DNA of 64,000 bases from Stratiformator vulcanicus (GTDB taxonomy: Bacteria > Planctomycetota > Planctomycetia > Planctomycetales > Planctomycetaceae), in assembly GCF_007744515.1 (NCBI RefSeq), contig NZ_CP036268.1, forward strand, positions 1,002,529 to 1,066,528. The letters run 5' to 3'. Made by a program: the position numbers and the translations under genes. Shown in pieces: positions 40,627 to 63,583 of the stretch; positions within the stretch are counted from its first letter, which is position 1; each line of letters starts with the position of its first letter. Below the pieces are notes generated by a model. The model was given only the letters and a program-made list of their open reading frames with translations, searched no databases and was not told the DNA's origin.

Positions 40627-41742
40627 TTAGAACGGTTCCAAAGTCGGCTTACGACCCCAACGTATCCGAAATTGCGGGTGCAAGCGGTCGGCTTCGTAAA
40701 ACCACACATCAGCAGTCGACGAAATCTCCGGCTTACAAACCACCACTTTTCCGGAGGAGCCTGCAAAGAGTTGCGAATAAATACGGCCACGATCTTCAGT
40801 CGAGTTTTCTTGCGGAAAAACCGGTTGCCTATGTAATACCGCGCCGGTATCCGAATCGATCAAGACAAATTCAGAACCGTCGATGGCAACCAATCGAGAT
40901 TCTGATAAAAAACTGAATCCCCGCAAATGCGCGCTCTTCGCAGAATAGTCGAAACTAGCTTTAAAGTTATTTGCAAATTTAAATACACGTATTGCGTGTC
41001 TTCCATCTTCTTGCTGCAGGTGCAGCGCTAAAAGTTTGTTGGCGAAGTCGCAAGCAATGACGTTGGTTCGAACGTCATGCCGAAATCGAAATGGAATATC
41101 GCGACTTGAAACGGGAACTGTATTACGAAGTAGCCGCGTACGAAGATCTAACAGTATGATCTCGTTCGGCTTGTAGATAACGAGACCGTTATCGCCCCAA
41201 ATTTCGCAATCCAGCAGCGGCGAATTTCGAATTTCCTCTTGCCAAAGAAGCTCCTGCTCGCTCACGTCAAATACGCCGTATTCGCCCCGTGTCGCGAAGG
41301 CAAGCATTTTGCCGGTCCGGGTGGCCTCTAAATCGGTCGGCGCTTCGGCGACCGCAGAAGCAAATTCCCACGGCCCCTTACCTGGACGCCAACCCTCTCG
41401 ATTCTTCTTCAGCTGATTGACCGCGGAAAAAACCATTGAATCGGCACAGGCAAGCGCTACCTCAAAGTCGTCAACTCCCACATCCAGAGCAACCGTGGTT
41501 GAGCTTCTTTCGAAAACTTCAATCACTGTAAGGTTCGACGAACCACGGCCAAAACGAATAGTTCGATCGAAGCCAGCGATCGCTACAGTATCACCGCGCT
41601 CCGAAATCGTAACGCCTCGGATCAAAGGCGGCGAAGATGGAAATAGCATTTCGAGGGCAATCACGATGACCGCGACGCCAATCGCAACAGCTATGCAGTA
41701 GTTCGCCACCCGTCGAGCATAAAATAGTTTGAGTTTCATCAT
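40627..41742 (-). CDS. Membrane-anchored protein with propeller-like region
   Basis: 371 residues. One N-terminal transmembrane helix (YCIAVAIGVAVIVIALEMLF) is followed by repeated beta strands in the style of a WD40/quinoprotein propeller (for example DTVAIAGFDRTIRFG, SVIYKPNE-like strands, RLVAIDGSEFVLIDSDTGAVL). No enzymatic motif is visible. The base composition is clearly more AT-rich than the neighbours. The next gene upstream on the same strand, also AT-rich in its 3' half, is an exported repeat protein. Function unknown. Confidence 0.6.
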   Translation of the reverse strand: MMKLKLFYARRVANYCIAVAIGVAVIVIALEMLFPSSPPLIRGVTISERGDTVAIAGFDRTIRFGRGSSNLTVIEVFERSSTTVALDVGVDDFEVALACADSMVFSAVNQLKKNREGWRPGKGPWEFASAVAEAPTDLEATRTGKMLAFATRGEYGVFDVSEQELLWQEEIRNSPLLDCEIWGDNGLVIYKPNEIILLDLRTRLLRNTVPVSSRDIPFRFRHDVRTNVIACDFANKLLALHLQQEDGRHAIRVFKFANNFKASFDYSAKSAHLRGFSFLSESRLVAIDGSEFVLIDSDTGAVLHRQPVFPQENSTEDRGRIYSQLFAGSSGKVVVCKPEISSTADVWFYEADRLHPQFRIRWGRKPTLEPF

Positions 41743-41786: not shown

Positions 41787-43832
41787 CTAAAAGTGATAAA
41801 TGTCGTAGGCGTAATAACCCGGTGGAAGAGGATCTCCCGGATAGCTGAGTCTGATAGGCCAATCACCATCGTACGTGGTGTGCCAGAGAGGGTTTAGGCC
41901 GGACCCGACGTGGAAGATGACCGTCGGGGTATCAGGCTTTCTTGATTCATCATAGATCGTGGCGTCCGCTATGTATACGCCCCAGTGTGAGAACCCGACG
42001 CTACGATTACGCAAAATATAGCGATCACTATTCAAGAGAAATGGCGACGCTGCGTCATACATCGTTGCTGAGTAAGAGTGGCAAAGGCTATCCCCCGACG
42101 TCGACTGCCATAAGCCGTACGCTGCTCCTGTCATTGCGAGCCAAGCTCGCATGAGTTCTGGGCGTATTTCAAGCTCCTTGGAAACAAACTCTACGTCCGT
42201 CGTAGACATTTGCCAGGTAACGGCTGCAAAACGCCGGACGGCCGCACGAAGCGAACCAGCCTGCTCGTCAATCGGCTTGTCCGACGTAAAGAAGGTGCCA
42301 GTGCCAATATCAACCGTTATGGTTTTTCCAAGTACATCAAGCCCGTAAGCCTCCCAAAATTTTGCTTCGGGGTCATCAGGGTCGCCCATGTCTGGCAAAT
42401 CTTGCATTGCGAGCGTGTAGCCCGCCCCGACCATGTAATCAAACATCGGTGCATAATGGGGATGCAATTCCCGAAATCGTTGGACGAGAACATGATTCGA
42501 ATATGCAACAACATTAATATACACGTTGGCAACGTCGGACAATTCACCGTCAGAAATTTCGTAAGTGAATCTATCTTCGCCGGCGAAGTCCGGATTCGGC
42601 GTATATGTAAATTCTCCGGTCACGCTATCAAACGATAAAATCCCGTTTGATGGGCCGCTTACAATTGTCGCAGCGAACATCCCCGGAGGTGAACTAAAAT
42701 CAAAGTCGTTTTCTGTCGGTAGCAAAAGCAATGAACTGCGATCGACTTCAAGTGTTTCGTTCATTTCGATGGTGTAGAAGTCGGTGTTTGCATACGGTTT
42801 TAAATTCTTAATTGTTACCACAACCCGCCCGCTCGCTACCGCAAAGCCAGTCGCGGCACCTTGTGTTGCAGTCACTTCAAACGCTTCGGTGAAGCCGACG
42901 CCTTTCCAGGATTTGCCGTCGATGTAGCCGGTCGATTCATAGTCGAGCTGCTTAATTAATTTCAGCTTGTGCTCGCCGTCGATCTCTTCGATTTCGAAAT
43001 ATTCGCTATTGCTGAGCGAGACCGAGAACGGATCGGACGCCCATTCGGCGGGGAGGGTAGCGACATAGGTGCCGACGGCCGTGTCTTCGCTCAACGTAAT
43101 ATTAATGTCGCCGACGACCGCGATCTTAACGTCCGCGGAGTCGCTCGAAACGCCATCGGTGACGGTGTAAGACAATTCGTCGACGCCGAGATAGTCGGCG
43201 TCGGGTTTATAGAACAGGCCGCCGCGTTTGCTTAGCCATTTCGCGACACCGCCGTCGGTCGAGACGTCGCGCTGCGTCGTCGTGGTGAGGTCATCGCCGT
43301 CCGAGTCGTTATCGTTATCGAATAACGGCCCGCGCCAGCCGGTGTAAATGTCGTCTTCATTGTTAATGACGAATGCGTCGTCGGCCGCTGTAACGGCGCT
43401 ATTGTTAAGTTTAATATTGACCGTCGCGTCGTAGGTGTCGGTGCCGTTGTCGACGGTGATATCAAAGGACGCGACGAGCTCATCGTCCGCGTTGGTGCTG
43501 AAATTCGTGGGCGCGATCCAGTCAATGCCGCCCCACTTGCTGACCCATTCTAATTGTCCACCGTCGACACCGTTGGCGGGCGTGAAATTACTGTGACCGG
43601 TAATTTGGGCCGACGGGTCGTTTAATTCATCGAGCAGTAACGAGTCGCGCCAGCCGGTCGAGATCCGCTTTTGGGTTTGGTGCCAGTCAATGTCGATCGT
43701 CTGCGGGTCGGTCGCGGTGCCCGAGAGCATCACCCGCTGCTCCAGCGGTTCGATTGCCGTGAACCCGCGTCGTCGGCGTCGCGGGCGAAAGGAGTCGGCG
43801 TAAAGGGAGCGCAGCCATTTCGTGACGACCAT
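41787..43832 (-). CDS. Exported repeat protein with planctomycete IEPLEQR-type N-terminal motif
   Basis: 681 residues. The N terminus has a basic run (RPRRRRRGF) followed by AIEPLEQRVMLSG (about residues 26-38), the signal-associated LEPR-like motif of large planctomycete secreted proteins. Two homologous segments follow, each starting TGWR (near residues 59 and 169) and each containing a K-x-GG-I/L-F/D pattern, then cadherin-like/Ig-like beta modules (VSGPSNGILSFDSVTGEFTYTPNPDFAGEDRFTYEISDG). The last 230 residues form a non-repeated domain with SHWGVYIADATIYDE and no known motif. A large secreted or surface protein; its partner is unknown. Confidence 0.7.
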   Translation of the reverse strand: MVVTKWLRSLYADSFRPRRRRRGFTAIEPLEQRVMLSGTATDPQTIDIDWHQTQKRISTGWRDSLLLDELNDPSAQITGHSNFTPANGVDGGQLEWVSKWGGIDWIAPTNFSTNADDELVASFDITVDNGTDTYDATVNIKLNNSAVTAADDAFVINNEDDIYTGWRGPLFDNDNDSDGDDLTTTTQRDVSTDGGVAKWLSKRGGLFYKPDADYLGVDELSYTVTDGVSSDSADVKIAVVGDINITLSEDTAVGTYVATLPAEWASDPFSVSLSNSEYFEIEEIDGEHKLKLIKQLDYESTGYIDGKSWKGVGFTEAFEVTATQGAATGFAVASGRVVVTIKNLKPYANTDFYTIEMNETLEVDRSSLLLLPTENDFDFSSPPGMFAATIVSGPSNGILSFDSVTGEFTYTPNPDFAGEDRFTYEISDGELSDVANVYINVVAYSNHVLVQRFRELHPHYAPMFDYMVGAGYTLAMQDLPDMGDPDDPEAKFWEAYGLDVLGKTITVDIGTGTFFTSDKPIDEQAGSLRAAVRRFAAVTWQMSTTDVEFVSKELEIRPELMRAWLAMTGAAYGLWQSTSGDSLCHSYSATMYDAASPFLLNSDRYILRNRSVGFSHWGVYIADATIYDESRKPDTPTVIFHVGSGLNPLWHTTYDGDWPIRLSYPGDPLPPGYYAYDIYHF

Positions 43833-44473: not shown

Positions 44474-44547
44474 GGACCTGTAGCTCAGTTGGTTAGAGCG
44501 CCATCTTCACACGGTGGAAGTCCCCAGTTCGAGTCTGGGCAGGTCCA
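44474..44547 (+). tRNA. tRNA-Val (anticodon CAC)
   Basis: A complete 74-base cloverleaf: acceptor ggacctg/caggtcc, D-arm gctc...gagc, anticodon stem ccatc/ggtgg with the seven-base loop ttcacac (anticodon cac, reading GUG valine codons), a five-base variable loop, and T-arm cccag-ttcgagt-ctggg. The discriminator base is A and CCA is not encoded. All stems are paired apart from one G-U type pair in the anticodon stem. Confidence 0.95.
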
Positions 44548-60424: not shown

Positions 60425-61660
60425 TCATTCGAAATCTTGCCCTAGGGCACTACTCCATCTTCTAAGAGGTTCGGAATACTTCTCTTCCTGCAGTTCGCCA
60501 AACATTTTTACCCTGTCAGCTGCATCCAACAGCGATGCCGATATGTCGGATCGATGATGAGTACTAACGAAAGCAATCTCGCGTTCCCGACACTCTACAA
60601 AGTGGTCTAAAGCCACTTGCGGATCAATTTCGTCGAGAGGCCGGCCGGACGAAAGTTCATGTCGCATTATCTCAGTATCAGAGCCGAAGTTCGCAGGGTC
60701 CGTGGTGGCGAACAACTGATACTCGGACGCCTCCAAGAACCGATGAAGTTTCAATGAGTATAGCCTTACGGCGGCACTACCTCCCCGATGGTATCCGCTG
60801 TCACGCCACTCTCCGTATCCTGCTCCATTGGCGAATCCGGACAGACCATCCCGATACAAAGCAACTGCAAAAAAACCACCATGCCACGCAAAGGGAAGAA
60901 TCCCCTCCGACGACAAGCACGAAACGGACGTTCTGTAATCAAGTAGTTCTTCCGTCGACGCTTCGAGTTCTTTGAAATTGTTCGGATAAATCGAAACGGA
61001 CGTGATACCCGACTCAACATATGACCGAGCGACTTTCACCCAATCTCGCGACGCCTCGTGCGGAAGTCGTTTCAAATGCAAAACGGGTCTAACTGCGGAG
61101 GGTGGATGGCTCGCCAACGTAAAATCTATTGCGCTGCTGTTTAACTCCCACCATTCGTCACCAAAGACCTCGCATTCAAAGTAGGGCGGTACTACCACTT
61201 GAGGCTGTCGCATTTCATCTAATTCAGACACGCCCAGCAACTTTTTGTACTTCTGAAGCTTTCGCACATCTTCATCTCGCGCGCGAAAGTTCTGCTGGAA
61301 CGACAAGCAATTCTGGACGACTGAACCTAACAAATCCGTGGTAAAATCACGCGGACTTAATGCGCGAGAAAGACCTACTGTGCTGAACGGCGGCCCGAAT
61401 ATCTCCGCAACTTTTATGTGTGGTGGGCGAACATTGCTTCGATCCCACGCCTTCTGAAAGAGTGGAGTTCGTGGGTCGAATAGATATGTCTTATCCTGCG
61501 AGTGGCTAAGGAGCGCTCGAATAAATCCATACGTTCCTGTCGGGAACGCTGACGCAATCGAGAAGGGGATAACAATGCCCGAATATTTCTCGGTATGCTC
61601 ACGGAAGACTCTCTGCACGTTGTGCTGGTAAATGAGCAAGTGTTCAAAATGTTGAGCCAT
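60425..61660 (-). CDS. Barrel-like protein of unknown function, last gene of a four-gene cluster
   Basis: 411 residues from ATG 61660, which shares one base with the preceding stop (TAATG); the frame opens at 61696. The strand-helix alternation resembles a TIM barrel: strands GIVIPFS, KTYLFDP, QVVVPPYFE, RPVLHLKR, GITSVSIYPNN and GILPFAWHGGFFAVALY. Strongly patterned motifs, which could mark an active site, are AWHGGFFA (258-265), GAGYGEWRDSGYHRGG (279-294) and FDPRTPLFQ (61-69). It is not recognised as a known family. AT-richer than the chromosome. Upstream partners are a PD-(D/E)xK protein, a membrane protein and a Panacea-like protein. Confidence 0.65.
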   Translation of the reverse strand: MAQHFEHLLIYQHNVQRVFREHTEKYSGIVIPFSIASAFPTGTYGFIRALLSHSQDKTYLFDPRTPLFQKAWDRSNVRPPHIKVAEIFGPPFSTVGLSRALSPRDFTTDLLGSVVQNCLSFQQNFRARDEDVRKLQKYKKLLGVSELDEMRQPQVVVPPYFECEVFGDEWWELNSSAIDFTLASHPPSAVRPVLHLKRLPHEASRDWVKVARSYVESGITSVSIYPNNFKELEASTEELLDYRTSVSCLSSEGILPFAWHGGFFAVALYRDGLSGFANGAGYGEWRDSGYHRGGSAAVRLYSLKLHRFLEASEYQLFATTDPANFGSDTEIMRHELSSGRPLDEIDPQVALDHFVECREREIAFVSTHHRSDISASLLDAADRVKMFGELQEEKYSEPLRRWSSALGQDFE

Positions 61661-62067
61661 TAGATTGCCGACAGACTTGAAAGTCGTTCGTACCAAGCGT
61701 GCTTAAGAGAAGATGGAATTTTTGCGAGCGAAATAGCCTCGAATTCGATTACAGCGTGTGTCTCAAAAACCACAATCAGCCCCACCCCGTAACTGCTGAA
61801 TAGTTCGCGTTGGTTGATGCAGGGACGTGAGTAGTCATGCCAAATTGCAACGTAGGACAGTCCTCCGATCGTCCGATTCTGTTGAGCTTGCCATAATGCC
61901 CGACGCCAATCGCGAAGTTTCATCTCGACCGTTATTGTATCCAGGTCAGGAGATTCAGGGACGAATGCGAGGTCTATAGACTTTCGTCCGAAACGAACTT
62001 GCTCGATAGTTCGAAAATCGTTCGCGAACAATTCCTTCACTGCTGGCGCCATCTCGTTTTCGGTCAT
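61660..62067 (-). CDS. PD-(D/E)xK nuclease-like protein
   Basis: 135 residues. The likely nuclease core is D32 (RKSIDLAF), then E48-x-K50 in TITVEMKLRDWRRALWQAQQN, with the trailing R-x-x-L-x-Q-A-Q helix that often follows E-x-K in this superfamily. This D-(15)-E-x-K spacing is typical of restriction-endonuclease-like folds found in resolvases, repair and defence proteins. It overlaps the downstream gene by one base and follows the membrane protein gene by 7 bases. Nuclease activity is inferred. Confidence 0.65.
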   Translation of the reverse strand: MTENEMAPAVKELFANDFRTIEQVRFGRKSIDLAFVPESPDLDTITVEMKLRDWRRALWQAQQNRTIGGLSYVAIWHDYSRPCINQRELFSSYGVGLIVVFETHAVIEFEAISLAKIPSSLKHAWYERLSSLSAI

Positions 62068-62719: not shown

Positions 62720-63337
62720 TCAGTCTAAGTCTGAAGACGACGATGAAACGCGTTTTGCTTCAGGATGAATGCTGTTTGTCGTCATAAGCGGATACCGGTG
62801 ATAGACGTAACGAATGATTTGGCCGAGCGGTTTCGCACCAAACCGACTGACGACTGAGTCGATTGCTTCGCAATCGGCAGGTTTTTTTTGAAACAGCAAC
62901 TCTCGCAACTTCGATGCAACCACCTTGCCGTCATCAGTCAACGTGAATACTTTCTCCCGGACTGGAATCGCTTGGTTCTCATTGGTGTCTCGGTCTGAGT
63001 CGGTGGCAATGTCTTCAAGAAGAAGAGCCTCTTCCCGTGTCGCGTAGACAGACTCGACTTCCCGCTCCTCAATTTCAACCAGCCCACATCCGTCAAGAAA
63101 GTCAACGGCTTCGTGAACTCCCTTCGAGAATGGGCCGAAGTTCCAAGGGACGAAGTCGAACATTCTCCCAATGCCCTCAAAGGGCGTTTCTTCTTCAAGA
63201 ATGAAAACAAGCTTCTGTAGTCGTGTGACGCCAGCGAGACTCCTCCGCCGAAGTAGCCTTTCATTTGCCTCGAGTATCAGCAACACGACATCCTCTGGGT
63301 CGAATTGGATATCTATTACTTTATGTGTCGCGTCCAT
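62720..63337 (-). CDS. Panacea/SocA-like (DUF4065-related) protein
   Basis: 205 residues from ATG 63337 (an aaggg site lies upstream; the frame is open to 63520). Family-like motifs are GVTRLQKLVFILEEE, FDFVPWNFGPFSKGVHEAVDFLDGCGLV and the C-terminal VSRFGAKPLGQIIRYVYHRYP. The pattern T-x-L-Q-K-L-x-F...F-x-x-G-P-F/Y-S resembles Panacea/SocA-type antitoxins and related prokaryotic regulators. It is the first gene of the tight four-gene cluster. The match is by eye, so a distinct family is possible. Confidence 0.55.
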   Translation of the reverse strand: MDATHKVIDIQFDPEDVVLLILEANERLLRRRSLAGVTRLQKLVFILEEETPFEGIGRMFDFVPWNFGPFSKGVHEAVDFLDGCGLVEIEEREVESVYATREEALLLEDIATDSDRDTNENQAIPVREKVFTLTDDGKVVASKLRELLFQKKPADCEAIDSVVSRFGAKPLGQIIRYVYHRYPLMTTNSIHPEAKRVSSSSSDLD

Positions 63338-63430
63338 ATCGGCCGAACCCTTCGTAGGGCACCTTGTGTTCAGATATCGTATCAGTGTTGACCCAAGTAT
63401 CGCAACACTGGCGGCTACCGCCGGGTGCCC

Positions 63431-63449
63431 CTGCGGGCTAGTCCCGCAG
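63431..63449. repeat. Perfect 7-base hairpin at the island border
   Basis: ctgcggg (63431-63437) and cccgcag (63443-63449) pair perfectly around loop ctagt. It lies about 95 bases upstream of the first gene of the four-gene island and shares the word ctgcggg with the dispersed repeat. Confidence 0.7.
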
Positions 63450-63583
63450 TGCGGCTGACTCGGACGGATGGAATTCCCGTTGCACGGCTTTCGTCCCGCC
63501 CAGAGGTTGAATCGATGCAACGTGGTGGCAGCCGATGGTCTCGATCCGAGCTGCCGGACAAGCCGGGCAGTGGCACCCTGTCG

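What the first reader, a model, noticed from the sequence alone, without database searches (positions are those of the whole stretch)
41787..43832. Exported protein with planctomycete LEPR-type motif, internal duplication and a novel C-terminal domain
The N-terminal IEPLEQRVMLSG motif suggests a phylum-specific sorting signal. Two homologous TGWR-starting segments (about residues 59 and 169) form a repeat not typical of cadherins, and the last 230 residues have no recognisable family.
Basis: partly seen in the sequence, partly recalled or inferred. Interest (0 to 1): 0.5.

Follow-up and report, generated by a model that had tools for sequence, protein, structure and literature searches.

The report
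Polymorphic toxin with LEPR tag
This gene looks like one of a set of bacterial weapon proteins that keep the same front half but swap the probably toxic tip, along with a neighbouring gene that may protect the producer.

Summary
The ORF, the LEPR tag (just over its cut-off), the repeat and the unmatched C-terminus are real, but the protein is best read as a polymorphic toxin. One paralogue shares the whole front half and a second its rear part (each about 93% on DNA); both matches end at window 42817 (residue 339). Beyond it the three C-termini are unrelated and poorer in G+C, each with a different downstream gene. The second paralogue, an N-truncated cassette, ends in an AHH nuclease. The window's C-terminal domain has one convincing relative, in another genus of the family: the tip of an RHS-repeat protein, again with a single-membrane-helix gene behind it. 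Two other LEPR-tagged giants of this genome end in pretoxin-HINT plus AHH or GH-E nuclease. The domain matches no Pfam, NCBIfam, PADLOC or PDB sequence; conserved C584, H616, H641 and HTTxDGDxPI suggest a Cys-His enzyme (inferred). Gene 40627-41742, membrane-anchored, is the immunity candidate (inferred; homology to the gene behind the RHS relative not shown). Toxicity is untested. New variant of a known kind: polymorphic toxin with an unlisted LEPR/cadherin carrier and a new tip domain.

The parts
41787..43832 (-). LEPR-tagged polymorphic-toxin-like protein, 681 aa
43710..43754 (-). LEPR-XLL tag, residues 27-41 (IEPLEQRVMLSG...)
   Evidence: NCBIfam NF012209, 17.6 bits, cut-off 17; genome scan 21.8 bits
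42817..43904 (-). constant region: leader plus residues 1-339; about 93% DNA identity with C1:241098-242189; its 3' part (window 42817-43301) with C1:4539748-4540235
   Evidence: NG86 dS 0.20-0.24, dN 0.014-0.026
43413..43664 (-). first TGWR repeat (residues 57-140)
   Evidence: self-alignment
43122..43349 (-). second TGWR repeat (residues 162-237), within the Cadherin_5 match at 144-239
42516..42803 (-). Big_9 domain, residues 344-439, on the variable side of the junction (G+C 0.43 for residues 340-442)
41790..42506 (-). variable C-terminal domain, residues 443-681: proposed toxin module
   Evidence: relative on the tip of an RHS protein, E 4.8e-9
41832..42083 (-). core shared with the RHS-borne relative, residues 584-667: C584, H616, FHVGSG (H641), HTT[YW]DGD[WF]PI
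   Evidence: alignment A4 of the two sequences
40627..41742 (-). immunity candidate, 371 aa, one N-terminal membrane helix, 44 nt downstream, GC3 0.49

Best explanation
The protein is a polymorphic toxin. The constant half (LEPR-XLL tag plus Ig/cadherin-like repeats) would be the export and presentation carrier. The last ~240 residues are a toxin module that recombination can replace from residue ~339 onward together with the gene behind it, which is the probable immunity gene. Shown here by sequence: a constant front with three unrelated tips, the DNA homology ending at one point; one of those tips is an AHH nuclease; the window's tip also sits on an RHS carrier in another genus. Inferred: that the tip is toxic; that it works as an enzyme with a Cys-His centre (C584, H616, H641); that it acts in the envelope or periplasm, because the putative immunity protein has an N-terminal membrane helix and a large soluble part; and that the LEPR tag directs export.
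For: One paralogue shares residues 1-344 at 95% and then has another C-terminus; a third, truncated copy shares a later part. DNA matches to both copies end at the same query base. The variable parts show no similarity to one another (best E 4.1) and have lower GC3 than their fronts (window 0.73 to 0.52, z 5.65; L005 z 5.71; L006 z 3.83). The L006 tip is an AHH nuclease, 37.2 bits against cut-off 22.3; behind it is a weak Imm11 match (12 bits, below 22.1), a family listed with Tox-AHH in planctomycetes (PMC3482391, passages). L005 has its tip followed by a signal-peptide gene overlapping it at TGATG, then a partial second tip (52% identical) with a second such gene (28% identical; BLASTP E 8e-27). 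The window tip has a relative in G011 (E 4.8e-9; local alignment z 19.6, 0 of 1000 shuffles) at the end of a protein with RHS repeats (PF05593, 46.5 bits, 5 stretches), followed by a 373-aa frame with one membrane helix. Two further LEPR proteins in the genome end in PT-HINT plus AHH or GH-E. The definition used (constant 5' body, swapped 3' toxin-immunity cassettes) was read in passages of PMC3482391.
Against: The window tip has no recognised toxin or enzyme family, and only one credible relative came from 392 phylum and 397 class genomes (both include the own genome and overlap). AlphaFold models of the tip were useless (pLDDT 36.5 and 35.9). The window's and G011's downstream genes are not demonstrably homologous (local z 0.6, 256 of 1000 shuffles as high; global z 1.9, 40 of 1000), and G011 gave no match when the 371-aa gene was searched. 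That search of 197 genomes gave, besides the own gene, only two weak matches (E 5e-4 and 0.008, not read). The L005 tip has no match outside its own genome among 247 and is not a known toxin. L006 lacks the LEPR part and has no ATG before residue 484 (GTG/TTG codons from residue 42 on), so the nuclease copy looks like a cassette, not an intact protein. Outside this genome the front half is matched only as Big_9-type repeats (12 of 196 other genomes at E up to 1e-10, most of them residues ~311-448, three reaching forward to residue 72, 131 or 137); the genome-contig scan found none.
Confidence: 0.82

Rival explanations
1. A family of surface adhesins or display proteins with exchangeable binding domains; variation serves attachment or antigenic change, and the downstream genes are accessory surface proteins.
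For: Ig/cadherin-like front; the L005 tip is unclassified and looks beta-rich by eye; its neighbours, LRR-like by eye, have export signals.
Against: One tip is an AHH nuclease; the window tip sits on an RHS carrier in another genus; two other LEPR giants of this genome end in PT-HINT plus nucleases.
Confidence: 0.12
2. Toxin family, but gene 40627-41742 is a bystander and immunity lies elsewhere or is absent.
For: 44-nt gap rather than an overlap; no sequence similarity shown to the gene behind the RHS relative.
Against: Same strand, low GC3 like the tip (0.49; the lowest of 32 non-overlapping window ORFs of 250+ aa), and the same single-helix layout and near-identical length (371, 373 aa) as the frame behind the RHS relative.
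Confidence: 0.2
3. The C-terminal domain is a self-processing cysteine peptidase that releases part of the protein, not the toxin itself.
For: The single Cys of the protein is conserved with two His in the one relative; HINT-type processing precedes toxins in two other LEPR proteins of the genome.
Against: It is the last domain in both carriers, whereas PT-HINT precedes the toxin.
Confidence: 0.1

Closest known systems
Polymorphic toxin systems (CdiA, RHS, MafB types; PMC3482391)
   Same: Constant 5' body, variable 3' tip with its own neighbour gene, an N-truncated cassette and a partial second tip elsewhere in the genome
   Different: Carrier is a compact LEPR-XLL plus Ig/cadherin protein without RHS or HINT; 'LEPR' and 'cadherin' occur 0 times in the part held of that review (300,000 of 357,715 characters)
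RHS-repeat polymorphic toxins
   Same: The window's tip occurs on one (G011)
   Different: No RHS repeats in the window protein
LEPR-XLL proteins (NF012209)
   Same: Tag at the N-terminus
   Different: 681 aa against 4102, 5921 and 9375 aa for three others in this genome; one print report joins LEPR-XLL with RTX and seralysin domains in Vibrio (PMC10868602, passage), not with swapped tips
NlpC/P60 and other papain-like Cys-His hydrolases
   Same: Cys before a predicted helix, then an HWGVYI-like strand (recalled resemblance, seen by eye)
   Different: No Pfam match at E up to 10, no PDB sequence match

Membership tests
Polymorphic toxin system | Same carrier with different C-termini, breaking at one point | tested here: met
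   window gene plus one full and one truncated paralogue; both DNA matches end at query base 1084 (identity already falls over the last ~50 nt)
Polymorphic toxin system | Tip shared with a different carrier | tested here: met
   RHS protein of G011; one case
Polymorphic toxin system | Recognised toxin domain in the window protein | tested here: not met
   a recognised toxin is present in the sister cassette L006
Polymorphic toxin system | Recognised immunity gene directly downstream | tested here: inconclusive
   an ORF follows in each of the 3 copies; the window gene has no family; L006 Imm11 12 bits, below cut-off
Polymorphic toxin system | Toxicity and neutralisation | not testable with these tools
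   bench assay needed
LEPR-XLL domain protein | N-terminal match over the NF012209 cut-off | tested here: met
   17.6 bits against 17, marginal; paralogue L005 16.2 in the protein scan, below the cut-off, 20.7 in the genome scan
RHS or PT-HINT toxin | RHS repeats or PT-HINT domain | tested here: not met
   none in the window protein
Cadherin-like / Big_9 (tandem-95) | Pfam match over cut-off | tested here: met
   Big_9 80.2 bits, Cadherin_5 62.6 bits; NCBIfam tandem-95 76.7 bits, below its cut-off of 90
NlpC/P60 papain-like peptidase | Profile match or fold match | tested here: not met
   no Pfam match at E up to 10; fold could not be tested, models at pLDDT 36

The most novel reading that the evidence does not exclude
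LEPR-XLL marks an undescribed delivery route for polymorphic toxins in this phylum, used by compact and giant cadherin-like carriers. The window tip with its membrane-anchored neighbour is a new toxin-immunity pair, a Cys-His enzyme acting in the envelope, that moves between LEPR and RHS carriers.
Probability: 0.4. Interest if true: 0.72.

Novelty: new variant of a known kind. Interest (0 to 1): 0.58.

Why it matters
The LEPR tag has a family model, but the paper searches made here (listings, with passages of three papers) showed no link to polymorphic toxins. If it is a toxin delivery tag, a class of unexplained compact and giant proteins of this phylum gains a testable role in competition between bacteria, and a new toxin-immunity family can be assayed directly.

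Tried and rejected
Weak relatives of the tip: G251 and G282 (E 0.003 and 0.005) lie in a response-regulator-like ORF and opposite an aconitase-like ORF (both by eye), so chance. Of the 21 non-own matches, only G011 is credible; four more that I fetched (L141-L144) align poorly inside unrelated ORFs, and the other 16 (E 0.017 and weaker) were not read. Plasmids, phages, viral contigs and genome contigs gave no relatives of the tip, and genome contigs none of the constant region.

Structure: two AlphaFold jobs without an alignment gave no model worth a fold search, so none was run.

NlpC/P60 profile comparison: only 1 of 59 relatives has a member at E up to 1e-8, so no profile was built.

LEPR as a general toxin tag: only 2 of 31 AHH matches, or 2 of the 3 in frames over 1000 aa (the third, G122, has a LEPR-like motif by eye only), and 3 of 11 PT-HINT matches in frames over 1000 aa share the reading frame with a LEPR match. 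So it is one carrier among several. AHH was found in 23 of 297 genomes; of the 22 besides the own genome, 6 have no LEPR match at E up to 1 and 11 have one over the cut-off. The LEPR model also rings in 7 of 14 control genomes, over the cut-off in 1.

Terminator and promoter scans were at chance level. One paper search was badly built (the word stem 'planctomycet' as a whole word) and told nothing.

Full report
Observation. The ORF at 41787-43832(-) encodes 681 aa. NCBIfam places LEPR-XLL at residues 27-41, just above its cut-off (17.6 against 17 bits). There is no hydrophobic signal peptide, so 'exported' rests on the tag and the domain content. The TGWR segments (residues 59 and 164) are a weak but real repeat (score 69; 0 of 1000 shuffles as high, best 66). 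The second lies in the best Cadherin_5 match (144-239), and the best Big_9 match is at 344-439. The last 240 residues match nothing in Pfam, NCBIfam, PADLOC or PDB sequences.

Constant front, variable tip. In the single-contig genome (5.23 Mb) residues 1-344 recur at 95% identity at C1:241082-242122 (L005) with a different C-terminus, and a third place, C1:4539727-4540494 (L006), carries only the rear part of the front half. On DNA the matches to both (93% identity each) end at the same base, window 42817, residue 339, after some loss of identity over the last ~50 nt. A leader of 72 nt is shared with L005. The front halves are under purifying selection (dS 0.20-0.24, dN 0.014-0.026). The three tips show no similarity to each other (best E 4.1) and have clearly lower GC3 than their fronts. 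In the window the downstream gene has the lowest GC3 (0.49) of 32 non-overlapping ORFs of 250 aa or more.

The other two tips. L006 ends in an AHH nuclease (37.2 bits, cut-off 22.3), followed by a 213-aa gene with a sub-threshold Imm11 match (12 against 22.1 bits). The polymorphic-toxin review lists Imm11 with Tox-AHH in planctomycetes (PMC3482391, passages read). L006 has no LEPR part and no ATG before residue 484, only GTG/TTG codons from residue 42 on, so it looks like a silent cassette. The L005 tip is followed by a gene with a signal-peptide-like start whose ATG overlaps the stop, then by a partial second copy of the tip (52% identical) and a second version of that gene (28% identical). 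These neighbours look LRR-like by eye, but Pfam has no match. The L005 tip has no relatives outside its own genome among 247 genomes.

The window tip on another carrier. Among 392 phylum genomes no credible relative was found; among 397 class genomes there is one: G011, C154:1968-2381, same family and another genus, E 4.8e-9, 32% identity over residues 97-227 of the 239-aa query. Its best BLASTP piece is 19 of 31 identical, E 3e-10 in a two-protein search; local alignment z is 19.6, 0 of 1000 shuffles. It is the C-terminus of a protein with five RHS-repeat stretches (PF05593). A 373-aa frame opens at its stop codon (first possible start TTG; the true start is not known) and has one strong membrane helix, like the 371-aa gene behind the window tip. 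The two downstream genes are alike in length and layout only; homology is not shown (local z 0.6; global z 1.9; G011 not hit). Residues shared by the two tips include C584 (the only Cys of the 681 aa), H616, FHVGSG with H641, and HTT[YW]DGD[WF]PI.

LEPR and toxins elsewhere. The own genome has 11 LEPR matches at E up to 10, 7 over the cut-off. Two of the 7 are giants with recognised toxins: a 4102-aa frame with cadherins, Big_9, PT-HINT and AHH, and a 5921-aa frame whose last part has PT-HINT and GH-E (the two ends of the second were assigned to one frame by coordinates and frame length, its middle was not read). Two are the window gene and L005. The others are 902 aa (glycine-rich repeats by eye), 649 and 9375 aa, not resolved further. 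Behind the 5921-aa gene lie more PT-HINT cassettes with AHH and MafB19-type deaminase tips and an ankyrin gene. In G155 LEPR shares frames with AHH (5477 aa) and with PT-HINT (4551 aa). But LEPR is not the rule: 2 of 31 AHH matches, and 3 of 11 PT-HINT matches in frames over 1000 aa, share a frame with it.

Mechanism. I read the protein as a carrier plus exchangeable toxin-immunity cassette, as defined in PMC3482391 (passages). The neighbour of the nuclease tip (L006) has no hydrophobic start, fitting a cytoplasmic target; the window and L005 neighbours carry a membrane helix or signal-peptide-like start, fitting an envelope target. This, and the Cys-His enzyme idea, are inferences. AlphaFold did not resolve the fold.

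Novelty. The kind is known; the carrier and the tip are not in what I could search. 'LEPR-XLL' occurs in 2 papers of the library: one in passing (PMC9611531, passage), one reporting a Vibrio giant with RTX and seralysin domains (PMC10868602, passage). Searches joining planctomycetes with polymorphic toxin (13 of 13 papers listed), contact-dependent toxin terms (20 of 21 listed) or RHS and cadherin terms (12 of 34 listed) showed no title or abstract start that describes this; apart from passages of PMC3482391 these papers were not opened. Subscription journals are mostly missing from that library.

Noticed in passing
G000 C1:520000-535500 (L126, L078): Array of PT-HINT toxin cassettes (GH-E, AHH, MafB19-type deaminase and others) with an ankyrin gene behind the 5921-aa LEPR protein.
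   Followed up: partly
G000 C1:4430500-4447500 (L077): 4102-aa LEPR/cadherin/PT-HINT/AHH protein, followed by two more PT-HINT-bearing ORFs.
   Followed up: partly
window 44474-44547: tRNA-Val (cac) about 640 bases upstream of the gene start, on the other strand; the only tRNA found in the window.
   Followed up: no
window 60428-61702 and 62723-63583: Two further ORFs with low GC3 (0.51 and 0.56) against a median of 0.70.
   Followed up: no
G136 (search rows): 45 PT-HINT matches at E up to 1e-5 in one 6.7-Mb genome of the same class, many close together: large cassette arrays.
   Followed up: no
L006 2845-3792 and 4053-4742: Two unclassified ORFs just upstream of the truncated cassette; the second ends a few bases before the constant-region homology begins.
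   Followed up: no
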